A stretch of 64,000 bases of DNA from Paracoccus halophilus (lineage in GTDB: Bacteria > Pseudomonadota > Alphaproteobacteria > Rhodobacterales > Rhodobacteraceae), in the NCBI RefSeq assembly GCF_000763905.1, contig NZ_JRKN01000001.1, positions 62,001 through 126,000 of the forward strand. The letters are read 5' to 3'. The notes under the pieces are model-generated. The model was given only the letters and a program-made list of their open reading frames with translations, did not search any database and was not told the origin of the DNA. Both the position numbers and the translations under genes were made by a program. Shown here piece by piece: positions 15,181 through 30,094 of the stretch (the stretch's first letter is position 1; the number at the start of each line of letters is the position of its first letter).

Positions 15181-15181
15181 G

Positions 15182-15967
15182 TCAGACCTGCCACTGCGTG
15201 TCTGGCACATCGGTGATGAACATATGGCCCGGCGCATGGGTGATGGCAAAGGGGGGCCGTGATGCCATCAGCGCCGCTTGCGGGGTCACGCCGCAGGCCC
15301 AGAACACCGGTACCTCGTCGCGGCGAATATCGACCGGATCGCCGAAATCGGGACGCGACAGATCGCCGATACCCAGCCCTTCGGGGTCGCCGATATGCAC
15401 GGGGGCGCCGTGAACGGCGGGGGTCCGGGCCGAGATCGTCACCGCCTCGGCCACGCGCCCGGCCGGGATCGGCCGCATCGAGACGACCAGCTTGCCGTGC
15501 AGCCGCCCGGCGGGGCGACAGTCGCGATCGGTCAGGAACATCGGCACATTGCGGCCCTGCGCGATATGGCGCATCTCGATCCCGGCCTGTTGCAGCGGCG
15601 TCTCGAAGGTAAAGGAACAGCCGATCAGAAAGGTGACCAGATCGCCATGCTCGGCCCAGGCGGCGGTCGCATCGGCGGTTTCCTCGGCCAGCTCGCCGTC
15701 GCGCCAGACCCGGTAAAGCGGAATATCGGTGCGCAGATCGGCGTCAGGGGCAAGCGCGCTGCGATGGCTGCCCGGATCGGTCACGTCCAGAACCGGGCAG
15801 GGTTTCGGGTTTCGCTGCGCGTAAAGCAGGAAATCCCATGCCCAGTCGCGCGGCAAGGCGATCATGTTGCACTGGGTGAAGCCGGGCGCCATGCCGGCGG
15901 TCGGTCGCGGCGCGTCCCGGCGGCAGGCCAGACGGGCCGCGCGGGCACTGTCGGGATCAGGACGCAT
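15182..15967 (-). CDS. Putative hydro-lyase, DUF1445 / YcsI family
   Basis: A 261-residue protein of the DUF1445 family. Seen: [68 protein letters not shown] and a C-terminal [13 protein letters not shown] followed by [10 protein letters not shown]. The family includes Bacillus YcsI and is annotated as putative hydro-lyase; it is related to mammalian D-glutamate cyclase, which interconverts D-glutamate and 5-oxo-D-proline. That fits its place between pxpA (11-base overlap) and the fused pxpBC (1-base gap). The actual substrate is unproven. Confidence 0.88.
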
Positions 15968-16742
15968 TTTCCCGCCCTCCCTCGGTGAAGGGCGCGATCA
16001 GAACGCCGTTGTCGCGCAGGGCGTCGCGAACGGCGGCGGCGATCGCGACCGCGCCGGGGCTGTCGCCATGCACGCAGATACTGTCGGCGCGAAGACGCAG
16101 GGCCGAGCCATCCTGCGCCTCGATCACGCCCTCGGTGGCGAGGCGCAGCATGCGTTGCGCGATCAGTCCGGGATCATGCAAAACCGCGCCGGGTTCGCGG
16201 CGCGAGACCAACTCGCCCCCGGCGGTATAGGCCCGGTCGGCAAAGGCCTCGGCCACGGTATCCAGCCCCGCCGCCCGCGCCTGGGCTAGGATCGGCGCGC
16301 CGGCCAGCCCCATCAGCACCAGCGCCGGATCGACGGCGCGGATCGCCGCGATCACGGCGGCACCCTGTCCGGCGTCGTGCGCGATGGTGTTGTAGAGCGC
16401 GCCATGTGGCTTGACATAGCTGACCCGGGTTCCCGCCGCCCGGCACATGCCCTGCAGCGCGCCGATCTGGTAGATCACGTCGGCGGTCAGTTCGGCCGGC
16501 GCGACATCCATCCGCCTGCGGCCGAAGCCGACCCGGTCGGGATAGGAGACATGCGCCCCAATGGCCACGCCGCGTTCGGCTGCGGCGCGCAGCGTTTCAA
16601 GGATGGTCGCCGGGTCGCCGGCATGAAAGCCGCAGGCGACATTGGCCGAGCTGACGATGTTCAGCATGGCGCTGTCGTCGCCCATCTTCCAGGCGCCGTA
16701 GCCCTCGCCCAGATCGCTGTTCAGATCTATTCTGGCAGTCAT
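15957..16742 (-). CDS. pxpA: 5-oxoprolinase subunit PxpA (LamB/YcsF family)
   Basis: A 261-residue cytoplasmic protein of the LamB/YcsF family, full length. Diagnostic stretches: [19 protein letters not shown] at the start, [40 protein letters not shown] and a C-terminal [11 protein letters not shown]. PxpA works with PxpB and PxpC to hydrolyse 5-oxoproline to glutamate at the cost of ATP, removing a damage product of glutamine and glutathione. It lies second in the operon, 60 bases after the NRAMP-like transporter, and overlaps the YcsI-type gene by 11 bases. Confidence 0.93.
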
Positions 16743-16802
16743 CTAATCCTCCCTTGGGTCGGGCGGCGGGCGGCGGCGCCCGCGCCGGTCTTGTGCCTGG
16801 CG

Positions 16803-18032
16803 CTACAGGAACGCGAATATCCCGCCGATCGAGTTCGCGCCCATGTACCAGGTCAGCGCGCAGACGATCGCGGCGGCGATCAGCAGCGGCCGGTTGTAGC
16901 GATGGCCGCCCATCAGATCGGAACGGGCGAAGCCGACATAGGTAAAGATCGTCAGGCCGATCGGCAGGATCAGGCCGTTGAAGCCGCCGACAAAGATCAG
17001 CAGCGCCGCCGGCGCCGTCCCCAGCGAGACATAGACCAGAAGCGACACCAGAATGAAGCCGACCGTGGCCATGCTGCGCTGGCCGTCGGTCATCGCGCCG
17101 AATACGTCGAAGAAGCTGACCGAGGTATAGGCCGCGCCGATCACCGAAGTCAGAGCCGCCGCCCAGAGCACGACGCCAAAGATGCGCATGCCCCAATCCC
17201 CCAATGCGGCGGCGAATGCCTGCGCGGCGGGATTGGCGACCTGGCTGGACAGGTCCAGCGTGACCCCCGAGGCGACAACGCCCAGAATGGCCAGGAACAG
17301 CACGAAACGCATGATCCCGGTGACGATGATTCCGCTGAGCGAAGCGCGGGTGACATTGGCCAGATTCTCTTCGCCGACCAGCCCCTTGTCCAACAGGCGA
17401 TGCGCGCCGGAATAGGTGATATAGCCGCCGACAGTCCCGCCCACGATCGTCGTGATGGTGGCGAAATCGATCACATCGGGCAGCGCCGACTGACGCAGGG
17501 CCTCGCCGACCGGCGGGTTCGACGACAGCGCCACGATCACCACCATGGCGATCATCAGCAGGCCCAGCCCGATGATCGCGCGGTCGAGAATCAGGCCGGC
17601 GCGGCGCGACAGAAAGATGCCGATGGCCAGCAGTGCCGAGGCCGCGCCGCCGATCTTGGGGTCCAGCCCGAACATCGCGTTCAGGCCCAGCCCGGCGCCC
17701 GCGATATTGCCGATGTTGAAGGCCAGCCCGCCGACGATCACCAGCACTGCCAGCAGATAGCCCGAGCCGGGGATCGCGGCGTTGGCCGTGGCCGATGCGT
17801 TGCTGCGGGTCAGCGCGGTGATCCGCCAGATGTTCAGCTGGACTACGAAATCGATCACGATCGAGACAAGGATCGCGAAGGCAAAGGCCGATCCGAGTGT
17901 CGCAGTGAATGTCGCCGTCTGGGTGATAAAGCCCGGCCCGATGGCGGATGTCGCCATGAGAAATATAGCCGCCAGAAATCCGCCGCGGGCGGCGGCGCTG
18001 GCGGTGGGTGAGGTCGAGATGGGTTCAGCCAT
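16803..18032 (-). CDS. NRAMP-superfamily transporter lacking the metal-site motif
   Basis: A 409-residue membrane protein with about 11 helices. Start ATG 18032; a TTG at 18035 is also possible behind AGGAG. Helix 1 reads ATSAIGPGFITQTATF, where classical NRAMP metal transporters have the DPGN metal-binding motif; here the acid and the asparagine are missing. Helix 6 reads GGTVGGYITYSGAHRL rather than the MPH-type motif. It resembles Bacillus YcsG, which sits in the same ycsF-ycsG-ycsI-kipI-kipA neighbourhood. First gene of the 5-oxoprolinase operon, so it may carry 5-oxoproline or a related acid instead of metal; this is inference. Confidence 0.88.
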   Translation of the reverse strand: MAEPISTSPTASAAARGGFLAAIFLMATSAIGPGFITQTATFTATLGSAFAFAILVSIVIDFVVQLNIWRITALTRSNASATANAAIPGSGYLLAVLVIVGGLAFNIGNIAGAGLGLNAMFGLDPKIGGAASALLAIGIFLSRRAGLILDRAIIGLGLLMIAMVVIVALSSNPPVGEALRQSALPDVIDFATITTIVGGTVGGYITYSGAHRLLDKGLVGEENLANVTRASLSGIIVTGIMRFVLFLAILGVVASGVTLDLSSQVANPAAQAFAAALGDWGMRIFGVVLWAAALTSVIGAAYTSVSFFDVFGAMTDGQRSMATVGFILVSLLVYVSLGTAPAALLIFVGGFNGLILPIGLTIFTYVGFARSDLMGGHRYNRPLLIAAAIVCALTWYMGANSIGGIFAFL

Positions 18033-18363
18033 CAAAGAGCGCTCCTGTTGGATATGTTTTTTCTTGTGATGACCCGAGTGTCACAAATCATCCTATTTTA
18101 TGTCAATAATTATATGCTCATGGATGCAATATTGTTCAACAATATATCGCTTTTACAGTGAATTTAACCGATGCGCGGATCGCCCGGACTCCGGGCTCTG
18201 GCCTGCGGGGCATGCTGGACAAGGGTGTTTTCGCTGGTGGCACGGGCGAATCACCGCCGGCAAACGCGCCCGGCCGCAACGTATCTTGGGCAAGCGGAAT
18301 CGCCTTGGGACGTGGGCGGTTTGACGGGCGGCAGGGAACAGGACCGGGCTGCGGCGCGGGCTG
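18033..18363. other. AT-rich control region of the pxp operon, plus spacer
   Basis: About 330 bases between the four-gene decarboxylase operon and the NRAMP-like gene. The half next to the NRAMP-like gene (18035-18170) is unusually AT-rich for this genome and must hold its promoter and the palindrome at 18129-18145. The rest is GC-rich with no gene recognised. Confidence 0.5.
18129..18145. promoter_or_regulatory. Candidate GntR-type operator (ATATTGTT-C-AACAATAT)
   Basis: A perfect 8-bp inverted repeat with a single central base, about 100 bases upstream of the NRAMP-like gene. The TTGTTCAACAA core resembles operators of FadR/VanR-type GntR regulators. No GntR gene is in the window, so the regulator would be encoded elsewhere. 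Confidence 0.45.
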
Positions 18364-19374
18364 TCAGCCGACGCCGGAGGCAAGCGGATCGTGCATGGGC
18401 TTCGGCGCCGGCACCCGTATCATGCGCAGATCGTCCTTGAACCGGTCCAGGTGCAGCGGCCAGATCGCGCCGGGCCAGCGCAGTTCCGCCTCGCCCCGGC
18501 GCGGCCGGTAGACGGCGGTATAGAGCGTACCGAACCCTCGGTCGAATGCGGTCGAATAGATCGGCGGCTTGAGGAAGGCGCCGATGAATTTCTCTTCGGG
18601 CTCGACATGCAGGGTCAGCCGTTGCAGCAGGAAACGCTCGCGCTCGACGGTGGCGGTCATGCGGGCATGGGCCTCCCATTCGACGCGCTCCTGATGGTTG
18701 GTCGCGACCGCGCTATGGGAGACGATGGCCGGGCGATCCGGCGACATGTAGACGGTGACGAAGTCGCGCTTGCGGTCCAGCACGGTGACATTATAGCTCA
18801 TGTGGCTGGGGATCCGCGCCAGCATTCGTCCGGCCTCGGCCGCCGTCTCGCAGGTCTGCAGCACATGGCGCAGGATCAGCGGCACGCCGAAGCCGTCGCC
18901 GACCACGCGCCGCCCGCCAAAGGTCAGCGACAGCGCGATGCCCGCGTCGTTCACCCCGTCGACCAGCCCCCAAAGCCCGTCCGAGCTGCCCATCACCTTG
19001 CGGCCCTGCCATTCGCTGTGCAGGAAGATGCTGTCGAAGGCATGCGGGTTATAGTCGTAATTGCGCACCAGAACCGGCTCTTTCCCCGGCCAGATCGCCT
19101 GGCTGCAGCCCGACAGATAGGGCGGCGGCCGATAAAAGGACAGAAACCGCGAGGCCAGATCGCCGCCCCCCGCCAGATCGCAAAGCGCCTCGTAGAGCGG
19201 GATGATCCCGGGCATGTGCTGTTCCAGCGCGTTGCGGCATTCGCGATAGGTCGGCCGGGCATCCGCGCCCTCGCGCAGCCACCAGCGGCGATAGGCGGGC
19301 CAGTATTCGGCGAACAGCCCGGCCCATGCCGGGCCGGGCGTCGCCTCGCTTATCGCGCGCCAGCCAAGCTGCAT
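18364..19374 (-). CDS. C45-family autoproteolytic acyltransferase/hydrolase (carcinine hydrolase-like)
   Basis: A 336-residue Ntn-hydrolase. The new N-terminal nucleophile after self-cleavage would be Cys90 in SGCSQAIW; the partner motif RNYDYNP follows at 104-110, then DGVNDAGIALSLTFGGR and SYNVTVLDR, all as in the C45 / isopenicillin-N acyltransferase-like family, some members of which hydrolyse beta-alanyl amines. No signal peptide seen, so it is cytoplasmic. It is the last of four tightly spaced minus-strand genes (6 bases after the ATP-grasp gene). It may cleave or transfer an acyl or aminoacyl group on an amine made by the decarboxylase; this is inference. Confidence 0.85.
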   Translation of the reverse strand: MQLGWRAISEATPGPAWAGLFAEYWPAYRRWWLREGADARPTYRECRNALEQHMPGIIPLYEALCDLAGGGDLASRFLSFYRPPPYLSGCSQAIWPGKEPVLVRNYDYNPHAFDSIFLHSEWQGRKVMGSSDGLWGLVDGVNDAGIALSLTFGGRRVVGDGFGVPLILRHVLQTCETAAEAGRMLARIPSHMSYNVTVLDRKRDFVTVYMSPDRPAIVSHSAVATNHQERVEWEAHARMTATVERERFLLQRLTLHVEPEEKFIGAFLKPPIYSTAFDRGFGTLYTAVYRPRRGEAELRWPGAIWPLHLDRFKDDLRMIRVPAPKPMHDPLASGVG

Positions 19375-19380
19375 CGCCGG

Positions 19381-20835
19381 CTACAGGATCTTGAAGGCCG
19401 GGTCGGAAATCGCCGGGCCGGCCGTCACTTCGGGCAGGGGCCGCGCGGCGAATTGCGACTTGATGCCGTGAATCCAGCGCTTGGCCCGTTCGTTCAGCTG
19501 AAAACCGTTGGTCATCGAGCGGCCCCGGGTCACCAGAATGCCCAGATCCGCGCCTTCGTAACGGTAATCTCCGGGTTTCTGGATGCGCAGGAAAAACGCC
19601 TCATTCTCGCTTTCGACGGCGCGGCGGTGATAGTCGAAACGGTCGAAGACGACACTGCCGTCCATGCGCATCCGGTAGATCCCGGTCGGCGGCGCCTCGG
19701 TGATGATATCGACATTGTCCTCGGTATATTTGATCACCATCTGCGACCAGCCGTCGATCATGTCTGGATCGGCCCAGCGGGCGTTCAGCTCGTCCACGTC
19801 CAGCTTGAACTGCGCGCGCGAGAATTCCAGCAGGTGGAACAGGAACAGCGGCGCATCGGCATGGGCAAAGGCGGCGTGGTTGGTCATCGAACTGGCGCCG
19901 GTGATGCGCGGGTTCAGCTCGCCCAGCCACAGCTCGCCGGTTTTCTTGTCGATCAGGAAATCCAGTTCGAAATAGCCGCGATAGCCCTCCTTGCGCAGCT
20001 GTTCGCCGAATTTGAAGGTCAGGTCGCGGGCTTTCTGGCGGGCCTTGGGCGGAAAGGCGGTGGCAAAGATCTCATTGCCGCACCAGCCGCCGCGATAGGG
20101 GGTCAGCTCCCTGAACCCGACCAGTTCGGTCATCAGCGGGCCGACAATGGTGCCCTGTTTGGTTGCGCAGGCCTCGATCGCCGAGCCGCGGCAGTCGATC
20201 CGCTTCATGATCTTGATCTCGCCCTGGCCGACGATCTCGTGTTCATGGCGGCGGAAATCGGCCTCGGACCTGATGAAGAAGGTGGTGTGGCCGCTGTCGC
20301 CAAAGGCCGATTGCAGCACCAGATCATGCCCGATCCCTGCGGTTTCACAGGTCTTTTTCAGGTCGTCATAGGATTTCACCTCGGCCAGCACGTTCGGCAC
20401 CGAGGGCACGCCGGCCTTGTTGCCGATGCGGACGGTTTCGATCTTGTTGTCGCATTTGGTCCGCAGCCTGGCCTTGGGAAACCAGATTTCGCCGCCCAGT
20501 TCCCCGACCAGTCTTTCGGTTTCCTCGTCGAACATCAGGAACACGAATTTCGGCTTGCCGCCCCGGCGTTTCACCAGGTCGATGACTTCCTTGTGCTGCA
20601 AGAGATAGTTGTTGATATCCTCGATCGACTGGAATTCGGCATGCGGCTTTTCCGAGGGGCAAAAGACGTTCGGATGCTTGCCGTCGTAACAGTCCAGATA
20701 GCAGATATACTTGAAATTCTTGACCCATTCGTCGATGCCGAGCAGGTTGAAATTGGTTGCCGAAACGAAATAGATCGGCTCTTCGTTGCGGTGGAAGTAG
20801 CGGCGGATTTCCGAGATGTTGTTCAGCTTTGGCAT
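19381..20835 (-). CDS. ATP-grasp ligase family protein (biotin carboxylase-like)
   Basis: A 484-residue protein starting at ATG 20835 behind GGGAGG. The N-terminal 150 residues are a pre-ATP-grasp domain; the ATP-grasp part shows KAGVPSVPN, LVLQSAFGDSGHTTFFI, a basic RIDCRGSAIE stretch and the metal-binding block GELWLGELNPRITGASSMTN near residue 320. There is no biotin carboxylase C-domain, so it is likely a carboxylate-amine or carboxylate-thiol ligase rather than a true carboxylase. It sits 18 bases after the large PLP decarboxylase, whose amine product could be its acceptor. Substrates unknown. Confidence 0.8.
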   Translation of the reverse strand: MPKLNNISEIRRYFHRNEEPIYFVSATNFNLLGIDEWVKNFKYICYLDCYDGKHPNVFCPSEKPHAEFQSIEDINNYLLQHKEVIDLVKRRGGKPKFVFLMFDEETERLVGELGGEIWFPKARLRTKCDNKIETVRIGNKAGVPSVPNVLAEVKSYDDLKKTCETAGIGHDLVLQSAFGDSGHTTFFIRSEADFRRHEHEIVGQGEIKIMKRIDCRGSAIEACATKQGTIVGPLMTELVGFRELTPYRGGWCGNEIFATAFPPKARQKARDLTFKFGEQLRKEGYRGYFELDFLIDKKTGELWLGELNPRITGASSMTNHAAFAHADAPLFLFHLLEFSRAQFKLDVDELNARWADPDMIDGWSQMVIKYTEDNVDIITEAPPTGIYRMRMDGSVVFDRFDYHRRAVESENEAFFLRIQKPGDYRYEGADLGILVTRGRSMTNGFQLNERAKRWIHGIKSQFAARPLPEVTAGPAISDPAFKIL

Positions 20836-20853
20836 GGATCGTCTGGCCCTCCC

Positions 20854-23586
20854 TTATTCTGCAGCCGTTGCGAGTTTCCTGGTCTGTCCGGCCAGGGCCT
20901 CGTCGGTAAAGACGCGCAGGCCCAGTTCTGCGCGATAGCCGTGGATCTCGTTCACGTCGAGCGCGCGCATGAAGGCCAGGATTTCCCGGCTGACCACCTG
21001 ACCGGGCACGAGGATCGGAAAGCCGGGCGGATAGGGGATGATGAACGAGGCCGAGACCACCTCGCGCCCGGCATCCATCGCGGCCTCGATCCCGTCGTTC
21101 AGTTCCAGATAGTCGCAGTTGTTTTCGTCGTAAGAGAGGAAAAAGGCCGAACGCATGTCGCCCTCGCCGGTTGCCGGGTCGGCGCAGAACGCGGCGTGAA
21201 AGCGCGAGAAATCCGGCAGCGGCGGCAATTCCTGCATCAGGTTTCGGACCCGCCGTTCAAAGGCCAGCTTTTCCATCCGCGAGGCGTCGTCCAGCAGCTC
21301 GTCCAGCCCCTTGGCGATTTCCACCAGCACCTCGATCAGATAGGCGACCGAGGAACGTGTGGTGCCGATATTGGTCATGAACAGCACGGTATTGCGCGAG
21401 GTCTTGTTGATCTGGATGCCGTATTTGTCCATCAGGATCCGGGTCTTGAACGTATCCCCGTCCCAGCCGGTGCCGCCGACCGCCAGCGTGACCCGCGTCG
21501 GGTCCAGCACGAATTCGTCGTTTTCCCAGCTGTCCCAGGTATCGGTCCAGCCCCGTTCCGGGTCGTAATAGCTCTCGACGCCGGAATCGCGGTATTCGGC
21601 GGGGATCATATCGCCGGTGGACAGCACGGTGAAATATTTCTGCACCAGCGGATGGGTGGCGATCGCCCGCCGCATCGCCATTGCCGCGTCGATCTGGCGC
21701 TGGACGAATTCGAAACCCTCCAGTTCGACCTGGCGGCGGCCGACATCCAGCGATGCGATGATCTGATAGTTCGGACTGGTCGAGGTATGGGTCATATAGG
21801 CTTCATGAAAGCTGGCCTCGACCTCGCCCTTGAAGTCCTGATCGTTGACGTGGATCATCGACCCCTGCCGCAGCGCGGTCAGCGTCTTGTGCGTCGATTG
21901 CGTCGTATAGACCCGGACCCGCGCCGTCGGCGGCGGGATCAGCCGGGTCTTGAGCAGCGTCGCCTCGTCGGCATCCTTGAGCTTGGCCTGCTGCTTTTCA
22001 TAGGCTTTCGCATGCGCGGCCGAGCGCAGCCGCTCGCGCAGGCTGTTGGCGGCATTCATGCCGGTGCGCTTGCGATAGGTGGCGTTGAACCGGGCAAAGG
22101 CGAACCATGCCTCGTCCCACAGGAAGATCAGGTCCGGCTTTATGGCCAGGCATTCCTCCATCACGCGCTCGACATTATAGACCACGCCGTCAAAGGTGCA
22201 GTTGGTCAGCAGCAGCATCCGCACGCGGTCCAGCTTGCCGGCCGCCTTCAGCCGCAGCAGCTGGTGCTTGATTTCCCTGATCGGCACGGCGCCATACATC
22301 GAATATTCGTTCAGCGGATAGCTGTCCAGGTAACGGACCTGCGCCCCGGCCAGCACCATGCCGTAATGATGCGACTTGTGGCAGTCGCGGTCGACCAGCA
22401 CGATATCGCCCGGCCGCACCAGCGCCTGCACGACGATCTTGTTGCAGGTCGAGGTGCCGTTGGTGGCGAAAAACGTCTGTTTCGAGCCAAAGGCCCGCGC
22501 CGCCAGTTCCTGCGCCTCCTTGATCGGGCCATGCGGCTCGAGCAGGCTGTCCAGCCCGCCCGAGGTGGCCGAGGTTTCCGCCAGAAAGATGTTCGGCCCG
22601 TAGAACGCCCCCATGTCCTGGATCCAGTGCGAGCGGCTGATCGACTTGCCGCGCGAGATCGGCATGGCGTGAAACACGCCCGTCGGCTGCTTGGAATATT
22701 CCCTGAGCGCGGTGAAGAAGGGCGTCTTGTAGCGCGCCTGAACGCCCCGCAGGATGTTCAGGTGCAGTTCCACGAAATCCTCCTGATTGTAGAACACCCT
22801 GCGACAGATCCCCAGGTCCAGCCCGGCGATCTCTTCGACCGAGCGATCGGTGACGAGATAGGCGTCCAGTTCCGGCCGCACCTTGGCGACCAGCCGGCAC
22901 AGTTCGGGCCCGTAGTTTTCGGGCAGGATCTCCTCGATCGTATCGCCGCCGGCGGGATCGAGATAGCGCTTGAGGATCGGCAGCTTGGTGCTGGATTCCA
23001 GCTCCAGGCCGGGGCGGACAACGATCGCCTGGATATTGTGGTTGAACATCACGCCGATCAGCGCGTCCTCCAGCGACGGCACCACGACGGGTTCATAGAT
23101 GAAGGGATCCTCGGGGCGGCGCATGGCGCGCATGGAATCCTTCAGGAAGCGCTCCTGATGCTCGTTCAGATTGTCCACCACCAGCACTTCGAAATAATGC
23201 TTGGACAGGGCGCGCGCCTCGGGCGAAAGGGTCGCCTCGTCATCATGGTCGTCGGCATCGCTGGCATCGCGCTCCAGCGGGATCGAGCGCCGGCGATAGG
23301 CGCCGGTGGTCAGCGCCCGTGTCACCCGCCGCACAAGGGTGCCGACATCGTCGATATGGTCATGCTCGAACTGCCGCCGGATATAGTCGAAGGCGGCGGT
23401 GCCGGGAAAGGCCCAGTACCTTTCGATCAGCGCCAGCGATCCCAGAAGCTCGCCGATCCGGGCCTTGAGTTTGGCCGAGCCGGGGCCGTTCCTGTTGCGG
23501 CCATAGCGCTCGAGCGCCTCGCGCAGCGCGCTCCAGCGATCCGCGCGCAGTTGCACGGCCGAGAAATAGTCGCTCATCGACTCCAT
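20854..23586 (-). CDS. Large Orn/Lys/Arg decarboxylase-family PLP enzyme
   Basis: A 910-residue PLP enzyme of the fold-type I Orn/Lys/Arg decarboxylase group. An N-terminal wing domain (about 1-290) is followed by the PLP domain with FFATNGTSTCNKIVVQALVR, DRDCHKSHHYGMVLAG, IFLWDEAWFAFARFN and the Schiff-base lysine, Lys567, in STHKTLTALRQGSMIH, then the C-terminal domain. It is longer than the usual 710-760 residues of biosynthetic or acid-induced decarboxylases, mainly at the N-terminus and in inserted helices around residues 515-545. Expected reaction: decarboxylation of a basic amino acid to a diamine or agmatine. Start ATG 23586 follows GGAGGAG. Co-transcribed with nitrilase, ATP-grasp and C45 genes. 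Confidence 0.9.
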   Translation of the reverse strand: MESMSDYFSAVQLRADRWSALREALERYGRNRNGPGSAKLKARIGELLGSLALIERYWAFPGTAAFDYIRRQFEHDHIDDVGTLVRRVTRALTTGAYRRRSIPLERDASDADDHDDEATLSPEARALSKHYFEVLVVDNLNEHQERFLKDSMRAMRRPEDPFIYEPVVVPSLEDALIGVMFNHNIQAIVVRPGLELESSTKLPILKRYLDPAGGDTIEEILPENYGPELCRLVAKVRPELDAYLVTDRSVEEIAGLDLGICRRVFYNQEDFVELHLNILRGVQARYKTPFFTALREYSKQPTGVFHAMPISRGKSISRSHWIQDMGAFYGPNIFLAETSATSGGLDSLLEPHGPIKEAQELAARAFGSKQTFFATNGTSTCNKIVVQALVRPGDIVLVDRDCHKSHHYGMVLAGAQVRYLDSYPLNEYSMYGAVPIREIKHQLLRLKAAGKLDRVRMLLLTNCTFDGVVYNVERVMEECLAIKPDLIFLWDEAWFAFARFNATYRKRTGMNAANSLRERLRSAAHAKAYEKQQAKLKDADEATLLKTRLIPPPTARVRVYTTQSTHKTLTALRQGSMIHVNDQDFKGEVEASFHEAYMTHTSTSPNYQIIASLDVGRRQVELEGFEFVQRQIDAAMAMRRAIATHPLVQKYFTVLSTGDMIPAEYRDSGVESYYDPERGWTDTWDSWENDEFVLDPTRVTLAVGGTGWDGDTFKTRILMDKYGIQINKTSRNTVLFMTNIGTTRSSVAYLIEVLVEIAKGLDELLDDASRMEKLAFERRVRNLMQELPPLPDFSRFHAAFCADPATGEGDMRSAFFLSYDENNCDYLELNDGIEAAMDAGREVVSASFIIPYPPGFPILVPGQVVSREILAFMRALDVNEIHGYRAELGLRVFTDEALAGQTRKLATAAE

Positions 23587-23681
23587 GGAAATCGCCTCCT
23601 CCCTTCGCTGCCACGGCCCTCTCCCGCGGGCCGTGGCTCTGGCTCCTCGGCCAGCCGCCCCGTTGAACGGGGCCTCTGTGT

Positions 23682-24668
23682 CTAGTCGCCCGGTGATGTC
23701 ACTCCCTGCGGGACAGCGCTCCCCTCGCTGCCCTTGAACGATGGTTGGACGCCGTGATCGCGTGTCGCGTCCAGATATGTGTCGCGAAACGAATGGTCGC
23801 CGGTAAAGACCGCGCCCTGCCGGGGCATGGCCAGCGGGCCAAGCGACTGCAGATAGGCGTCGGTGCCGCTGCTGCGGTCATAGACCGGGAAATCGACCGC
23901 CCGGTCGCGAAAGCTCTTCAGCACCTGGCCCAGGCCCTTCAGCCCGTTCAGACGCTGGCGGCGGACCTGGTCCAGATCGACCTCGATCGGGAACATGTCC
24001 TCTTGCCCGGTCGACTGGTGCAGCACCTGCGCCGAAGGATCGACGACGCAGGACCGCCCATTGCCGCCGGCGCCCAGCCCGTTCACGTCGAAGATGTAGC
24101 ACTGGAACTGCGCGGCGGTGGCGCGCGCGATCGCCAGTTCGGCATCGCGGTCCGTGGTGCCGGTCAGAACCGGGTGCAGCAGCACCTCGACCCCCTGGCT
24201 GGTCAATTGCCGGGTGGTTTCGGGGAACCAGATATCATAGCAGATCGACAGGCCGAACCGGCCGATGCCGGGCACGTCGAAGACGCAGAACTCGGTTCCC
24301 GCCTCGACGCCCGCCTCATAGGGGCGAAAGGGAAACATCTTGCGATAGGTGGTGACGATCTCGCCCAGCGGGTTGATCACCGTCGCGGTGTTGTAGATGC
24401 GCCCGTCCGGGCAGCGTTCGAACATCGACCCTGGCAGCAGCCAGATATGGTGGCGCCGCGCCGCCGCCTGAAACCGCTCGATATGCTCGTTGGTCAGCGG
24501 CAGCGCATGGCGGGTCAGCGGGCCAAAGGCCGCCAGTTCGGAAAACAGCACCATCTGGGTCCATGGAAACCGCGCCATCAGGATGTCGATCCGCTGCAAC
24601 ATGCCCTCGATATTGGGCTGCACCGCGTTGACCCACATCTGCACGCCGGTGATCGCGAATGGTGTCAT
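23682..24668 (-). CDS. Carbon-nitrogen hydrolase (nitrilase/amidase superfamily)
   Basis: A 328-residue nitrilase-superfamily protein. The catalytic triad is visible as Glu44 (LFSELAAFGP), Lys110 (TYRKMFPFRP) and Cys143 (SICYDIWFPE). Start ATG 24668 (MTPFAITGVQMWVN) is supported by AAGAGG; the frame upstream is open for 300 codons more but that part is made of decayed transporter and receptor pieces. Members of this branch hydrolyse amides such as N-carbamoylputrescine or glutamine-like donors. It is first in the operon with the large PLP decarboxylase (95 bases downstream), ATP-grasp and C45 genes, so an amidase step in amine metabolism is likely but unproven. Confidence 0.87.
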   Translation of the reverse strand: MTPFAITGVQMWVNAVQPNIEGMLQRIDILMARFPWTQMVLFSELAAFGPLTRHALPLTNEHIERFQAAARRHHIWLLPGSMFERCPDGRIYNTATVINPLGEIVTTYRKMFPFRPYEAGVEAGTEFCVFDVPGIGRFGLSICYDIWFPETTRQLTSQGVEVLLHPVLTGTTDRDAELAIARATAAQFQCYIFDVNGLGAGGNGRSCVVDPSAQVLHQSTGQEDMFPIEVDLDQVRRQRLNGLKGLGQVLKSFRDRAVDFPVYDRSSGTDAYLQSLGPLAMPRQGAVFTGDHSFRDTYLDATRDHGVQPSFKGSEGSAVPQGVTSPGD

Positions 24669-24917
24669 TCTGCCTCTTCTTCCCGTTCTGACCGCTTCCG
24701 GCCGCGCCGCAATCAATCGTTCAACCACTTCACGGCCCGGCAGCGTCAGGCGATCCGCGTTCCCTCCAGCGTAGCGCCGTCCGGCATTTCCACAACCCCT
24801 GTTGTCGTCATCGGTCGGCCCCCGAACGCGACAGCCGGGTCGGCACGGCATTATCTGCAACAGATGGACAGGCTTGCCGAAGAAACCGTTATGACCCGTC
24901 GCGGCCGGCCGCGCCTG
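24669..24917. other. Upstream region of the nitrilase operon
   Basis: About 250 bases between the nitrilase start and the receptor remnant. It must hold the promoter of the four-gene operon. The minus-strand reading frame stays open through it, but the translation (PVHLLQIMPCRPGCRVRG...) looks like non-coding sequence. Confidence 0.4.
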
Positions 24918-25370
24918 CCAGAACGACCAGCCGTAGCCCAGATAGACCCGGCGGCCCTGATCGGCGACACGGATCGCGTCCCCGTTCAACGGGTTTTCGC
25001 GGACCGAGGTGGCGGTGCTGTTCTCCTGCTGGCGGCCGAGCAGGTTGGTGACACCGAACTGCAGCGCGCCGCCGTCCAGCGGGTAAGAGCCATAGGCATT
25101 CACCGTCACCATCTCCTCCAGTTCCGGCTGGCCGGTCTTGTCCCGGCCGGCGGCATAGACCAGCGCGGCCTCGCCGCCCCAGATGCGTTCCTCCTGCTGG
25201 GTGACGGTGCCCTCGTCCGAGGTGGACAGAAAGGCCGATGCCGATGCGCTGAGCGCCGCGCCGGAATAGTGCAGGCCGATCTCGACGATCTGCGCGTCGG
25301 GACGCAGCGAGGCGAAGGAAACGGTCTGCCCGGGCAGGAACGGAATGGCGGGCATCGCCCGGCGGGTACG
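24918..25370 (-). pseudogene. TonB-dependent receptor remnant (C-terminal barrel)
   Basis: About 150 codons resembling the end of a TonB-dependent siderophore receptor: FLPGQTVSFASLRPDAQ, VEIGLHYSGAALSASASAF, YGSYPLDGGALQFGVTNLLG and a terminal strand RRVYLGYGWSFW, whose aromatic end is typical of outer-membrane barrels. The plug and most of the barrel are missing, and the stop expected after the final aromatic residue is gone. The piece is joined in frame to a transporter remnant, so a deletion has fused two neighbouring genes. The intact SIP reductase nearby suggests both came from a siderophore-uptake locus. Confidence 0.7.
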
Positions 25371-25832
25371 GCCGACGATCAGCACGCCAAAGGCCAACGC
25401 GCCCGCCTGCACCGCATTGCCGAAGGCATGCTGCCCGGCGGGCAGGTGCTCGGCCGCCCAGCCATCGGCGGCGATGTCCTGCGTCGCCGAACTGAGCGAC
25501 ATGGTCATCAGGATCGGAAAGAACCGTACCGCTTCGGCCACCGGATCAAGGCGCGACAGCAGCAGGATCGCGCCAAGGGTGATCGCCTGGCACAGCAGCA
25601 CGACGCCCTTGCGCCCGATGCGGGGATGGCGCGCCAGCCGGTCGATGACCGGGGCCTAGGCCGCTTTCAGCACCCAGGGCGCCAGCAGCGCGCCAAGCGC
25701 CCCGATGACCGCCAGATCGACGCCGCGCGCAGGATCGGCGGCAGGGCGGCCGCCACAAGGTAAATGCGGTATGGATTGCGCCAGATACAGGCCTGAAAGG
25801 GCGATGGAGGTTGAAGCCGGCGGCCGCGTCAC
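25371..25832 (-). pseudogene. MFS (RhtX/AmpG-like siderophore transporter) remnant
   Basis: The N-terminal third of an MFS transporter. From a GTG at 25832: IALSGLYLAQSIPH, then a shift to another frame (YLVAAALPPILRA), then back (GVDLAVIGALGALLAPWVLKAA), an in-frame TAG at 25656-25658 where the family has Trp before APVIDRLARHP, then SLSSATQDIAADGWAAEHLP and FGNAVQAGALAFGVL. After that the match stops and the receptor remnant begins. Two compensating frameshifts, one nonsense codon and a fusion deletion show it is dead. Its DIAADGWA motif is typical of RhtX/FptX and AmpG-like carriers. Confidence 0.72.
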
Positions 25833-25956: not shown

Positions 25957-27006
25957 TTACTGCCGCGCCGGGTCGCCGGCGATCCAATAGGCGGCCAGAT
26001 GCGCGCGTTGTTTCGGAATCGCCAGATGCTCGAATATCGCCTTGCGCAGCGGCGCGATGCGGCTTTTCTCGGTGGCCAGCCAGATGCGCGCGGCGGTCGT
26101 GCCCTGCCGGGTCAGCTGCGCCGCCAGCTCGGCCTCGCCGCGCGGCGCGCGGATCATCCGGATGCCGTCATGGCGGGGCAGGGGATAGTCCTCGGCATCG
26201 CCGAACAGCCAGCAGTCGCCGCAGGTCTCGGGCGGCTGCGCCTCGATGATCCGCGCCAGCGCCGGATAGGCGGTTTCATCCCCGCCGATCAGCAGCCGCG
26301 GCGCCAACGGCACGCCGCCGCCGCCCGGCCCAGTCAGTCCCACCCGGATGCCGGGCGCGGCATTCCGCGCCCAGTCGCAGACCCGGCCGCCGTCATGGAT
26401 GAAGATATCGGTCTCCAGCCAGCCGGCCGCCGCGTCAATGGCCCGGACGGTATAGGCGGGGCGGTGCAGCGCCTTGTCGCCCCGCGGCCAGACGGTCTGG
26501 CCATTCGCGCCCGTCATCGGCCATTCGGGCTGCGGATCGCCGGGCGGCGGCAGGATCAGCCGAAAATGGATCATGTCGCGGGCAAGCCGGTCCAGATTGT
26601 CGCCGCGCAGGCGCAGCCGCAGGAAATACCGCCCGGCAGGGCTCAGGCTTTCGACCCGGGCAAAGCTGAAATTGGGCGGCAGCTCGCCCATCCGGGGCAG
26701 GCCCGACCAGCGCAGCAGCGGTGCCAGATCGGGGTCGATCCCGATCAGGTGGCAGGTCATCGCCTCTTGCAGGGTGAACAGCCAGTCGCGGTCATGGGCG
26801 CGAACGTAAAGGACGCTGCCCTCGGGCCCCACGCGCGCGCCGAATTCGCCGCCATCGACCTGGCACCAGGTCGAGTGGCCATGCCCCGAGCGCAGCATCA
26901 GCCCGTGTTCCTCGGCCTCGCTGCGCAGCAGGGCGTCGATGCGCTCAAAGGGCAGGCCGGGCAGCGCAGCCTCGGATTGTAGCGGCGGGGCGGGGTCGTG
27001 TCTCAT
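25957..27006 (-). CDS. Siderophore-interacting protein (SIP) with N-terminal DUF2218-like domain
   Basis: A 349-residue flavoprotein. The N-terminal 105 residues look like a DUF2218 domain (VLYVRAHDRDWLFTLQEAM, CHLIGID). The remainder is a SIP-type ferric-siderophore reductase: DMIHFRLILPPPGDP, the FAD region HRPAYTVRAIDAAAGWLETD, FIHDGGRVCDWARNAAPGI, and the NAD(P)H-binding domain LLIGGDETAYPALARIIE. These cytoplasmic enzymes reduce ferric siderophores to release iron. The adjacent MFS and TonB-receptor genes are decayed, so this gene may now be orphaned. It appears full length with no frame damage. Confidence 0.88.
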   Translation of the reverse strand: MRHDPAPPLQSEAALPGLPFERIDALLRSEAEEHGLMLRSGHGHSTWCQVDGGEFGARVGPEGSVLYVRAHDRDWLFTLQEAMTCHLIGIDPDLAPLLRWSGLPRMGELPPNFSFARVESLSPAGRYFLRLRLRGDNLDRLARDMIHFRLILPPPGDPQPEWPMTGANGQTVWPRGDKALHRPAYTVRAIDAAAGWLETDIFIHDGGRVCDWARNAAPGIRVGLTGPGGGGVPLAPRLLIGGDETAYPALARIIEAQPPETCGDCWLFGDAEDYPLPRHDGIRMIRAPRGEAELAAQLTRQGTTAARIWLATEKSRIAPLRKAIFEHLAIPKQRAHLAAYWIAGDPARQ

Positions 27007-27339: not shown

Positions 27340-27709
27340 GTCAAGATTCCTGACTGTTTCAATCCAAATACATGGTTGGCCGATCCCGGGGCAGGCCGTT
27401 TCAGCCTTTGCTGTAATGCCTTGGATCGGGCGGCGTCTAACCGGCATGAACCCGAAAACGGCAGCCAATGATATCTGACATGACCCTGACAAGGAGATCC
27501 GGCCGCAGGGCCGTCGCTCTGTTCCGCGAGGAGTTCGGCTCCCGCCGCCAAGATTGCCATGCGGGCAGGGCGGCTATACCCTGGGTGGTATGGCCGCAGG
27601 AAATACTCCAACCCGTCCGCGTTCACATGCCTGCTACTCGAACCCGCCAAGGTGGTCTCGCCGATGCGTGCGCGCGGTGGCTGGCCCCCCAAAACACACA
27701 GGTCACGAC
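27340..27709. other. Control region of the copper ATPase gene
   Basis: About 370 bases between the RTX remnant and the ATPase start. The first part is slightly AT-rich (27340-27480). It holds the dyad at 27572-27595. Open frames here overlap and look non-coding. Confidence 0.4.
27572..27595. promoter_or_regulatory. Candidate CsoR-type copper operator
   Basis: Imperfect dyad GGCTATACC-CTGGGT-GGTATGGCC, 115 bases upstream of the copper ATPase start; one mismatch between the 9-bp arms. CsoR/RcnR-type repressors bind G/C-tract dyads of the ATACC...GGTAT form. No csoR gene is in the window, so the link is only by motif and position. Confidence 0.35.
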
Positions 27710-30094
27710 ATGAACGATCAACACAAGCAGAACCTCCCGGACAACCTGCCCGAGGGCACGATCTGGACCTGTCCGATGCATCCCGAAATCAGGCAGCCCG
27801 AGCCGGGCTCCTGCCCGAAATGCGGCATGCATCTGGTGCCCGAGGGCGACAAAGACGCAGCCCGGGGCCATGCCGGGCATGGCCATGGGCACGGGCACGG
27901 CCGGCATGCCGGCGGCGACGCCGGGGACGGCAAAAAGGACGGCAAGTACGATACCGTCCCCGCCGGCTGGTCGGGCACCGTCTATACCTGTCCGATGCAT
28001 GCGCAGGTGCGCCAGACCGAGCCGGGCTCCTGCCCGATCTGCGGCATGGGGCTGGAACTGGAATCGGCGGCGATGGCCGAGGATGGCCCGAACCCGGAAC
28101 TGGTCGATTTCACCCGCCGCTTCTGGGTCGGCACGGTCCTGACCATTCCGCTGCTGATCCTGACCATGGGGCCGTATCTGGGCTTTCCGCAGGTGCGCGG
28201 GATCTTTGGCGAACGCGCGACGCTGTGGATCGAGCTGGTGCTGGGCACGCCGGTGGTGCTGTGGTGCGGCTGGCCGTTCCTGGTGCGGGGCTGGAATTCC
28301 TTCCGCACGATGAACCTCAACATGTTCTCGCTGATCGGCATGGGCGTCATCGCGGCCTGGATCTTCAGCATCGTGGCGGTGCTGGCGCCGGGCATATTCC
28401 CCGACGGCTTCCGCAACGCCGAGGGCCATGTCGGCGTCTATTTCGAGGCGGCGGCGGTGATCGTCACGCTGGTGCTGCTGGGTCAGGTGATGGAGCTGCG
28501 CGCCCGCGAGGGGACCGGCAAGGCGATCCGGGCGCTTCTGGACATGGCGGCCAAGACGGCGCGGGTGATCCGCGACGATGGCCGCGAGGAAGAGGTGCCG
28601 CTGGACGAGGTTCAGGTCGGCGACCGGCTGCGGGTGCGGCCGGGCGACAAGGTGCCGGTCGATGGCGTGGTGCTGGATGGCCGCTCCTCGGTCGATGAAA
28701 GCATGATCACCGGCGAGCCGGTCCCGGTCGAGAAGGTCGCGGGCGAGCCGGTCACCGGCGCCACCATCAACGGCACCGGCTCGCTGGTGATCGAGGCGCG
28801 CCGCGTCGGCGCCGACACGATGCTGAGCCAGATCGTCGAGATGGTGGCCAATGCGCAGCGCTCGCGCGCGCCGATCCAGAAATATGCCGACAAGGTCTCG
28901 GGCTATTTCGTGCCGGTGGTGATCGTGATCGCGGTGCTGGCCTTCATCGCCTGGGCGGTCTGGGGTCCGGCGCCGGCGCTCTCCTATGCGCTGGTCGCCG
29001 CGGTGGCGGTGCTGATCATCGCCTGTCCCTGTGCGCTTGGTCTGGCCACGCCGATGTCGATCATGACGGCGACCGGGCGCGGCGCGCAGGCCGGCGTGCT
29101 GATCAAGAACGCCGAGGCGCTGGAGCGGTTCGAAAAGATCGACACGCTGATCGTCGACAAGACCGGCACGCTCACCGAGGGCAAGCCGCGGCTGGTCGGC
29201 GTATTCCCGCAGCCCGGCCATGACGAGACCGAGGTGCTGCGCCTGGCGGCGGTGCTGGAAAAGGGCTCGGAACACCCACTGGCCGAGGCGATCGTCGCCG
29301 GCGCCGAGGCGCGCGACATCAGGCTGGGCGAGGCCGGCGAGTTCGAGGCCGTCACCGGCAAGGGCGTCAAGGGCATGGTGGACGGCCGGCCGGTCGCGCT
29401 TGGCAATCTGGCGATGATCCGCGATCTAGGGCTTGAGGCGGGCGATCTGACCGACAAGGCCAATGCGCGGCGCGATCAGGGCGAGACGGTGATGTTCGTG
29501 GTGCTGGAAAACGCCGTGGCCGGGTTGGTCTCGGTCGCCGATCCGGTGAAAGAGACGACGCCGGCGGCGCTGAAGGAACTGCACGAGCTGGGCTTCCGCA
29601 TCATCATGGCCACCGGCGACAACGAACGCACCGCAAAGGCCATCGCCAGCCGGCTCGGCATCGACGAGATCCGCGCCGACGTCCTGCCCGAGGACAAGGC
29701 CCGGATCATCCGCGAGCTGCAGGAAAAGGGCGCCAAGGTGGCGATGGCGGGCGACGGGGTGAACGACGCGCCGGCGCTGGCGCAGGCCGATGTCGGCATC
29801 GCCATGGGCACCGGCGCCGATGTCGCGATCGAAAGCGCCGGCATCACGCTGGTCAAGGGCAATCTGGACGGCATCGTCCGCGCCCGCCGGCTGGCCAGCG
29901 CGACGATGCGCAACATCCGCCAGAACCTGTTCTTCGCGCTGATCTACAACGCGGCGGGCGTGCCGGTCGCGGCGGGGGTGCTGTACCCGTTCTTCGGCAT
30001 CCTGATCAGTCCGATGTTCGCCGCCTTTGCGATGAGCGCCTCGTCCATCTCGGTGGTGATGAACTCGTTGCGGCTGCGCGGCGCGCGCATATGA
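27710..30094 (+). CDS. Copper-type P1B ATPase with duplicated CPMHP metal-binding N-terminus
   Basis: A 794-residue efflux ATPase. Start ATG 27710 ([12 protein letters not shown]) is where the conserved part begins. Two copies of a heavy-metal-binding module precede the membrane part: [20 protein letters not shown] at 20-39 and [20 protein letters not shown], separated by a His/Gly-rich linker. Then come eight helices, the actuator motif TGEPVPVEK, the transmembrane metal site C439-P-C441, the phosphorylated Asp483 in [18 protein letters not shown] and [15 protein letters not shown], and a last helix with [12 protein letters not shown], the MxxSS motif of Cu(I) pumps. It should export Cu(I)/Ag(I) to the periplasm. 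Confidence 0.93.

What the first reader, a model, noticed from the sequence alone, without database searches (positions are those of the whole stretch)
18364..24668. Four-gene operon that may make and unmake an amine conjugate
A nitrilase-fold amidase (E44-K110-C143), an unusually long Orn/Lys/Arg-type decarboxylase (910 residues, Lys567), an ATP-grasp ligase lacking the biotin carboxylase C-domain, and a C45-type autoproteolytic hydrolase (Cys90) are packed on one strand with gaps of 95, 18 and 6 bases. The enzyme classes form a sensible chain: decarboxylate a basic amino acid to an amine, ligate it to an acid using ATP, and hydrolyse or transfer the acyl group. I know of no named pathway with this exact set. 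The substrate, product and purpose are inference.
Basis: partly seen in the sequence, partly recalled or inferred. Interest (0 to 1): 0.82.

Follow-up and report, generated by a model that had tools for sequence, protein, structure and literature searches.

The report
Conserved four-enzyme amino-acid breakdown module
Four neighbouring genes travel together through several bacterial groups and probably break down a nitrogen-rich amino acid to a small amino acid such as GABA by attaching and later removing a protecting group; the enzyme set looks new but its chemistry is untested.

Summary
On the minus strand, nitrilase (NIT), long Orn/Lys/Arg-type decarboxylase (ODC), ATP-grasp ligase (GRASP) and C45 hydrolase lie with gaps of 95, 18 and 6 bases. 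They are co-inherited: of the 80 nearest genome loci all have GRASP and ODC, 79 C45 and 75 NIT, 73 in the same order. Rearranged sets occur in distant genomes.

Neighbours point to catabolism: GABA transaminase, a PuuR-like regulator and a TAXI-TRAP importer; an arginine-to-GABA gene set; and, in 16 of 17 loci examined from one distant family, the ectoine-degradation cluster.

Best reading: GRASP acylates an amino acid or amine, most likely with glutamate; CO2 is lost; C45 removes the acyl group; GABA or beta-alanine results. The ODC does not pass as a known Lys, Orn or Arg decarboxylase: 97 of 97 members have Asn where CadA and SpeC have Glu. Its closest solved relative is Rv2531c, of unknown activity.

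Against a simple Puu substitute: 13 of 13 tested carriers outside the window's genus also have a PuuD-family gene. Substrate and product remain inference.

The parts
23682..24668 (-). nitrilase-fold amidase (NIT), 328 aa, triad E44-K110-C143
   Evidence: PF00795 106 bits; triad in 77 of 77 aligned relatives
20854..23586 (-). long Orn/Lys/Arg-type PLP decarboxylase homologue (ODC), 910 aa, PLP lysine K567, Asn727 where CadA/SpeC have Glu
   Evidence: PF01276 256 bits; best solved relative Rv2531c (9n0o, E 3.9e-252)
19381..20835 (-). ATP-grasp ligase (GRASP), 484 aa, named 'biotin carboxylase' by NCBIfam PRK06524
   Evidence: NF005096 771 bits, cut-off 684; searches give only general ATP-grasp matches
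18364..19374 (-). C45-type autoproteolytic amide hydrolase/acyltransferase, 336 aa, predicted cleavage G89-C90
   Evidence: NF040521 185.5 bits, cut-off 85; isopenicillin N acyltransferase Z 27.7, rmsd 3.3, 301 aligned

Best explanation
The four genes are one catabolic module that turns an amino acid carrying a second nitrogen (candidates: arginine, ornithine, lysine, 2,4-diaminobutyrate) into a short omega-amino acid such as GABA or beta-alanine through an acylated intermediate. GRASP spends ATP to form an amide, most likely a gamma-glutamyl amide on the free amine. The PLP enzyme ODC removes the alpha-carboxylate, before or after the acylation. The shortened chain is brought to the acid by the nitrilase, or by aminotransferase and aldehyde dehydrogenase genes that lie alongside some copies. 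C45 removes the acyl group, as isopenicillin N acyltransferase removes an alpha-aminoadipyl group (recalled). GABA transaminase and succinate semialdehyde dehydrogenase finish the job. Shown: gene content, co-inheritance, conserved catalytic residues, predicted C45 fold, neighbouring catabolic genes. Inferred: every substrate, the glutamyl group, the order of steps and the nitrilase's task.
For: Co-inheritance: in the 80 nearest loci with GRASP, 80 have ODC, 79 C45, 75 NIT. Of the 18 other genomes hit in the class and phylum searches, 12 have all four, 3 are cut by contig ends, 2 lack NIT and 1 has GRASP alone. Catabolic surroundings: TAXI binding protein in 36 of 80 loci, TRAP permease 37, gabT 23, PuuR-like regulator 20, class III aminotransferase 19; one regulator is 37% identical to E. 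coli PuuR over 187 aa and one gabT 52% to PuuE, though a regulator tested scores below the NCBIfam PuuR cut-off (132 against 211). In a same-genus genome (L040) the operon lies between 5-guanidino-2-oxopentanoate decarboxylase, agmatinase-family and ALDH genes on one side and SSADH and a GABA transaminase homologue on the other (the transaminase ORF scanned there was cut short and scored 677 against 724). In Shinella, Roseateles and Sinorhizobium RAC02 plasmids GRASP and C45 lie inside an arginine-to-GABA cluster without ODC: racemase, D-amino acid dehydrogenase, keto-acid decarboxylase, ALDH. In 16 of 17 loci examined from one distant family NIT-GRASP-C45-ODC lies in the ectoine-degradation cluster, where diaminobutyrate is the intermediate (pathway from passages of PMC3187862). 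The same aminotransferase family (PRK07483) lies next to a distant GRASP in L048 (502 bits, cut-off 485).
Against: No substrate was tested. 13 of 13 carriers tested outside the window's genus also have a PuuD-family hydrolase, and 12 of 13 have a PuuA/glutamine-synthetase homologue, so the module does not simply stand in for Puu. The nitrilase has no proven place in the scheme and is kept in Shinella without ODC. Three loci read gene by gene show neighbours that by eye look like housekeeping or unrelated genes (L143, L201, L203). The 80 loci are the nearest 80 of 536 confirmed relatives, mostly from one order, so their counts are not independent, and no statistical control was made for the neighbour counts. 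In the window itself the neighbours look unrelated (siderophore-interacting protein; Nramp and 5-oxoprolinase genes).
Confidence: 0.4

Rival explanations
1. Classic Puu logic with new enzymes: ODC makes a free diamine (agmatine, putrescine or 1,3-diaminopropane), GRASP replaces PuuA, the neighbouring aminotransferase and ALDH oxidise the other end, C45 replaces PuuD.
For: PuuR-like regulator and PuuE-like transaminase near some copies; at L111 a PuuA homologue (37%), a PuuB homologue (50%) and a standard 763-aa OKR decarboxylase lie directly upstream; E. coli SpeC accepts diaminobutyrate as well as ornithine (passage of PMC8503589).
Against: Asn727 replaces the Glu of CadA and SpeC in 97 of 97 members; tested carriers keep PuuD-type genes (13 of 13) and PuuA homologues (12 of 13); PuuB-like genes are in only 2 of 80 loci, PuuA in 1, PuuD in none; the nitrilase is left without a task.
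Confidence: 0.22
2. A reversible conjugate: GRASP and C45 make and break an amine conjugate for storage, detoxification or stress, as glutathionylspermidine synthetase/amidase or insect Ebony and Tan do (both recalled, not from a call).
For: Ligase and amide hydrolase are adjacent in most of the 80 loci; a universal stress protein gene is next to NIT in 19 loci; link with ectoine degradation in one family.
Against: Importers, GABA transaminase, SSADH and keto-acid decarboxylase neighbours indicate onward breakdown; ligase and hydrolase in one operon without separate control would run a futile cycle.
Confidence: 0.13
3. ODC acts on an acidic or neutral amino acid (a glutamate-type substrate giving a GABA-type product) and GRASP/C45/NIT handle an imported amide of it.
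For: ODC lost an acid (N727) and the loop read as PGHxGG in the E. coli enzymes became PISRGKS with R312 and K314; homologues of dicarboxylate/glutamate carriers and of a glutamate/aspartate binding protein lie next to the Cupriavidus copy, both below their NCBIfam cut-offs; TAXI-TRAP importers and glutamate-synthase-family genes lie near some copies.
Against: 98 family-specific invariant positions exist, so picking a few charged ones is weak; 5-guanidino-2-oxopentanoate decarboxylase, agmatinase-family and diaminobutyrate genes argue for basic substrates.
Confidence: 0.15
4. Unrelated neighbours: four enzymes with separate roles that happen to sit together.
For: In the window's own genus only 3 of 37 genomes carry the GRASP gene, so the cluster is accessory, and its local neighbours differ.
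Against: Four-gene linkage persists with different orders (NIT-ODC-GRASP-C45; NIT-GRASP-C45-ODC; ODC apart with gabT) across distant genomes.
Confidence: 0.03

Closest known systems
Puu (gamma-glutamylated putrescine) pathway of E. coli
   Same: A related regulator (37% to PuuR) and GABA transaminase (52% to PuuE) lie beside some copies; the logic of ligating, then hydrolysing an amide would match.
   Different: No PuuA, PuuB or PuuD homologue among the four genes, and hardly any near them; ATP-grasp and C45 families instead of glutamine synthetase and C26; PLP decarboxylase and nitrilase added.
Rv2531c of Mycobacterium tuberculosis (structures 9n0n, 9n0o, 9n0p)
   Same: Closest solved relative of the long decarboxylase, aligned with residues 13-901.
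   Different: Its activity is unknown (passage of PMC12910592); its gene surroundings were not examined here.
Isopenicillin N acyltransferase (C45, 2x1c)
   Same: Fold of the predicted model, Z 27.7, rmsd 3.3, 301 residues; Gly-Cys at the predicted cleavage site.
   Different: 14% identity; the acyl group handled is unknown.
Ectoine-degradation cluster doeABX-CD
   Same: In 16 of 17 examined loci of one family the set lies with doeX-, doeC- and doeD-like genes.
   Different: The described H. elongata cluster has doeX between doeB and doeC and does not list these genes (passages of PMC3187862).
Biotin carboxylase / carbamoyl phosphate synthetase ATP-grasp enzymes
   Same: Weak sequence and fold match over the ATP-grasp part (best E 4.9e-7; Z up to 8.0, poor model).
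   Different: No biotin carboxylase domain is recognised by Pfam; the motif reads NPRITGASS where the carboxylases have NPRIQVEH.
5-aminovaleramidase (DavA) and arginine 2-monooxygenase routes (recalled)
   Same: Nitrilase-type amidase in a route from lysine or arginine to an omega-amino acid (recalled).
   Different: The four genes hold no flavin monooxygenase; the similarity of NIT to DavA was not tested.

Membership tests
C45 acyltransferase/hydrolase | curated family score | tested here: met
   NF040521 185.5 bits against cut-off 85; PF03417 106.5 against 23.2
C45 acyltransferase/hydrolase | Ntn fold of isopenicillin N acyltransferase and Gly-Cys cleavage site | tested here: met
   predicted model pLDDT 82, Z 27.7 to 2x1c; G89-C90 in the window, C90 invariant in 45 of 45 aligned
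C45 acyltransferase/hydrolase | self-cleavage and amide hydrolysis | not testable with these tools
   needs protein
Orn/Lys/Arg decarboxylase superfamily (OKR_DC) | family score and PLP lysine in STHK | tested here: met
   PF01276 256 bits; K567, D491, H403 in 97 of 97, shared with AdiA, CadA, SpeC
Known lysine, arginine or ornithine decarboxylases | NCBIfam cut-off of any such model | tested here: not met
   best 212 bits against 968; all six models hit are far below cut-off
Known lysine or ornithine decarboxylases | Glu proposed as substrate site in lysine decarboxylase (LdcI Glu526; docking, passage of PMC5607190) | tested here: not met
   Asn727 in 97 of 97; Glu in CadA and SpeC, Thr in AdiA
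Biotin carboxylase | biotin carboxylase N- and C-domains | tested here: not met
   no Pfam domain found in GRASP at E up to 0.01, whereas the window's 13615-11840 protein shows both
Biotin carboxylase | NPRIQVEH-type motif (role recalled) | tested here: not met
   profile alignment reads NPRITGASS at this place
ATP-grasp ligase superfamily | ATP-grasp fold with E-x-N-P-R motif | tested here: inconclusive
   E306, N308, P309, R310 invariant in 15 of 15; model only pLDDT 59, Z up to 8.0 with many ties
Nitrilase superfamily | Glu-Lys-Cys triad and family score | tested here: met
   PF00795 106 bits; triad 77 of 77
Puu pathway | glutamine-synthetase-type PuuA and C26-type PuuD in the cluster | tested here: not met
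   PuuA homologue in 1 of 80 and PuuD in 0 of 80 genome loci; both 0 of 49 other loci
Puu pathway | PuuR-type regulator and PuuE-type GABA transaminase nearby | tested here: inconclusive
   PuuR matches in 21 of 80 loci; PuuE in 40 of 80, which includes other class III aminotransferases; a regulator tested is below the PuuR cut-off

The most novel reading that the evidence does not exclude
A complete four-step route of protected oxidative decarboxylation, of which I found no description: GRASP masks the omega-amine of ornithine, lysine or diaminobutyrate with glutamate, so that later intermediates cannot close to a pyrroline or lactam; the long PLP enzyme, which lost the acid proposed to bind the distal amine and gained Arg312/Lys314, acts on the masked amino acid and, possibly with oxygen, yields the shortened amide; the nitrilase hydrolyses that amide to the acid; C45 removes the mask to give GABA, 5-aminovalerate or beta-alanine. 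It explains all four genes, the stand-alone copies and the replacement of ODC by racemase, dehydrogenase, keto-acid decarboxylase and ALDH in Shinella. It would also suggest a function class for Rv2531c.
Probability: 0.13. Interest if true: 0.85.

Novelty: new variant of a known kind. Interest (0 to 1): 0.62.

Why it matters
If right, many marine, soil and symbiotic bacteria carry an undescribed route that feeds arginine- or ectoine-derived nitrogen into the GABA shunt. The full set was checked in the loci examined here; 536 relatives of the ligase were confirmed by tblastn in genome contigs, of which only 80 were kept. The route would use an ATP-grasp enzyme now annotated as 'biotin carboxylase'. 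It would give a testable function to a branch of Orn/Lys/Arg-type enzymes that includes Rv2531c, whose structure is solved while its reaction is unknown, and would add to the picture of osmolyte breakdown in halophiles.

Tried and rejected
Unrelated-neighbours idea: rejected by co-inheritance. True biotin carboxylase: rejected on missing domains and motif. Link to the window's own neighbours (Nramp, PxpA, D-glutamate cyclase): rejected, because tblastn with these three proteins (E up to 1e-10) gave none of them in the 80 genome loci. Simple replacement of PuuA/PuuD: weakened, since tested carriers outside the genus keep such genes, and the window's genus lacks the C26 family in 13 of 13 genomes tested, with or without GRASP. 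GRASP pocket modelling: failed, model pLDDT 59; fold matches are tied at Z 6-8 among PurK, carbamoyl phosphate synthetase, BesA, Ddl and biotin carboxylase. A fold not listed there is not excluded.

Literature: searches for C45 plus biotin carboxylase, PRK06524, ketoarginine terms, C45/ATP-grasp/gamma-glutamyl and ATP-grasp/carbon-nitrogen hydrolase/C45 listed no paper; mixed terms listed two papers, seen as listings only and not on this gene set by title or abstract start. Searches listed ectoine, decarboxylase and polyamine papers; one search listed seven that mention Rv2531c. Of all these I read passages of PMC3187862, PMC4334477, PMC8503589, PMC5607190 and PMC12910592, and only listings of the rest. 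So 'not in print' holds only for these searches of an open-access library. The JBC 2025 paper on Rv2531c is not held; I know it only through a review passage and its reference.
Full report
What is there. The four ORFs and gaps are as described. Pfam and NCBIfam confirm the classes: CN_hydrolase, OKR_DC_1, PRK06524 'biotin carboxylase' (NCBIfam only; no Pfam hit) and C45. The window's genome has one copy of the ATP-grasp gene over the family's cut-off.

Distribution. Of 37 genomes of the same genus, window genome included, 3 carry the ATP-grasp gene as a strong match; of 385 in the class sample 10, of 398 in the phylum sample 11, the window genome included in both. In these 80, ATP-grasp and decarboxylase are in 80, C45 in 79 and nitrilase in 75; 73 keep the order NIT-ODC-GRASP-C45 (counting L111 and L113, which show an extra decarboxylase hit or piece). 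Of the 7 exceptions 5 are cut by contig ends (L052, L060, L101, L107, L124), L120 lacks the nitrilase nearby and L128 has the decarboxylase upstream. The 80 are the nearest relatives, mostly Rhodobacterales by record title, so they are not independent events. Among the 18 other genomes of the class and phylum searches, 12 have all four genes, three are cut by contig ends (G100, G231, G326), two lack the nitrilase (G455, G481) and one has only the ATP-grasp gene (G376). Two same-genus relatives, L040 and L041, have all four, the decarboxylase standing apart in L041. On plasmids, 32 records match the ATP-grasp protein, 24 of them over at least 80% of the query; 26 of the 32 are Rhizobium or Sinorhizobium, and 8 Sinorhizobium records hold only 39-47% of it in pieces.

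Neighbours. In the 80 loci, ORF clustering found a TRAP permease in 37, a TAXI binding protein in 36, gabT in 23, a universal stress protein in 20, an XRE-cupin regulator in 20, a glutamate-synthase-family protein in 20, a class III aminotransferase in 19 and a CoA-transferase in 8 (one representative each named). One regulator is 37% identical to E. coli PuuR over 187 aa and one gabT 52% to PuuE. A same-genus relative (L040, ATP-grasp 94% identical) has 5-guanidino-2-oxopentanoate decarboxylase (747 bits, cut-off 500), an agmatinase-family protein (214 bits, cut-off 174), ALDH, SSADH (724, cut-off 646) and a GABA transaminase homologue around the operon; the transaminase ORF scanned was cut short and stayed below its cut-off (677 against 724). 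L042, L044 and L104 have an agmatinase-family gene nearby. Shinella, Roseateles and Sinorhizobium RAC02 plasmids carry ATP-grasp and C45 in an arginine-to-GABA cluster that lacks the decarboxylase and has the nitrilase about 7 kb away on the other strand. Rhizobium plasmids carry decarboxylase, ATP-grasp and C45 with an ABC importer and an amidase; one copy is next to nifHDK.

Ectoine. In one family of the phylum (genomes unnamed; Halomonas-like by inference) 29 of 121 sampled genomes match. I examined 17 of these 29 loci: 15 fetched plus L145 and L146. In 16 the set NIT-GRASP-C45-ODC lies in a cluster with Lrp (taken as DoeX), DoeB, DoeC and DoeD; in 14 of these it is directly between the Lrp gene and DoeC (exceptions L185, with the Lrp gene several kb away, and L188, with a 3-kb gap before DoeC); L199 differs. 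DoeA, DoeB, EutB and EhuR were identified by NCBIfam; the labels DoeX, DoeC and DoeD are mine, from gene order and family (one search names them only as an aminotransferase subfamily and an SSADH-like protein below cut-off). In the published H. elongata cluster doeX lies between doeB and doeC and these genes are not mentioned in the passages read (PMC3187862). In another genus (7 of 151 in its family sample) six loci show no ectoine cluster, only a 27% match to the DoeA family in three, and in two loci read gene by gene the set stands among genes that by eye look unrelated.

Enzymes. C45: the model (pLDDT 82) matches isopenicillin N acyltransferase with Z 27.7, rmsd 3.3 and 301 aligned residues, above the next family, N-acylethanolamine acid amidase at 23.3. 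ATP-grasp: the model is poor (pLDDT 59), and only generic ATP-grasp matches are found; by profile the best solved relatives are carboxylases at E 4.9e-7, with NPRITGASS in place of NPRIQVEH. Decarboxylase: nearest solved chain Rv2531c, which a 2026 review calls a probable amino acid decarboxylase whose activity was not clarified (passage). Aligned with E. coli AdiA, CadA and SpeC, 97 of 97 family members keep K567, D491 and H403 but have Asn727 where CadA and SpeC have Glu and AdiA has Thr; the Glu is a substrate contact proposed from docking in a lysine decarboxylase (passage of PMC5607190). The loop read as PGHxGG in the E. coli enzymes is PISRGKS in the window. At L111 a standard 763-aa OKR decarboxylase lies beside the long one, with PuuA- and PuuB-like genes, so the two types coexist.

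Interpretation. Ligase and amide hydrolase conserved together, importers, a PuuR-like regulator, GABA transaminase and degradation genes for arginine and ectoine suggest a catabolic route through an acylated intermediate to GABA or beta-alanine. The Shinella cluster is informative: racemase, D-amino acid dehydrogenase, keto-acid decarboxylase and ALDH would perform the net change expected of the decarboxylase branch (alpha-amino acid to the one-carbon-shorter acid), while ATP-grasp and C45 are kept. That the acyl group is glutamyl rests on the relation of C45 to an alpha-aminoadipyl-cleaving enzyme (recalled) and on Puu-like neighbours; it is inference.

Results against it. 13 of 13 ATP-grasp carriers tested outside the window's genus have C26 (PuuD-family) genes and 12 of 13 have PuuA homologues at E 1e-40 (34-47% identity, so some may be ordinary glutamine synthetases), while all 13 genomes tested in the window's genus lack C26 whether or not they carry the operon. 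The nitrilase's role is not explained by the Puu-like scheme. The family-specific pocket changes are among 98 such positions, so their meaning is uncertain. A regulator tested scores below the PuuR cut-off. No statistical control was made for the neighbour counts.

Verdict. The feature is real and of wide spread; the make-and-unmake idea is plausible; the product and substrate remain open. I rate it a new variant of a known kind (protected amine or amino-acid catabolism), with a bolder reading not excluded.

Noticed in passing
window 24669-25601 (minus): An open frame runs from upstream into the nitrilase gene; no Pfam match. By eye it holds pieces like a permease and a TonB-receptor end, perhaps decayed genes beside an acquired operon.
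   Followed up: partly
window 11840-18035 (minus): Nramp-like transporter, PxpA, D-glutamate cyclase family, carboxyltransferase and biotin carboxylase: a 5-oxoprolinase-type cluster beside the operon; Nramp, PxpA and cyclase were not found in the 80 genome loci.
   Followed up: partly
window 25957-27006 (minus) and 27554-30094 (plus): Siderophore-interacting protein, and a metal P-type ATPase with two heavy-metal-binding stretches.
   Followed up: no
L036:6210-11480: Rhizobium leguminosarum plasmid copy next to nifHDK, with a short 121-aa ORF between decarboxylase and ATP-grasp that matches the Shinella nitrilase over 39 residues (69%) but no Pfam model, perhaps a remnant.
   Followed up: partly
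L111:857-12422: Pseudorhodobacter antarcticus: PuuA-like, PuuB-like and a standard OKR decarboxylase directly upstream of the four genes.
   Followed up: yes
G000-G010, G023, G036: The window's genus lacks the PuuD (C26) family in 13 of 13 genomes tested, unlike all 19 other genomes tested.
   Followed up: no
L035:14990-19452: Next to the Shinella arginine cluster lie NadE, an adenylate-forming enzyme, an acyl carrier protein and AsnB, perhaps a separate small biosynthetic cluster.
   Followed up: no
L048:7306-10451: A distant ATP-grasp homologue (46%) has no ODC, C45 or NIT match in the stretch held but sits directly after a PRK07483 aminotransferase.
   Followed up: partly
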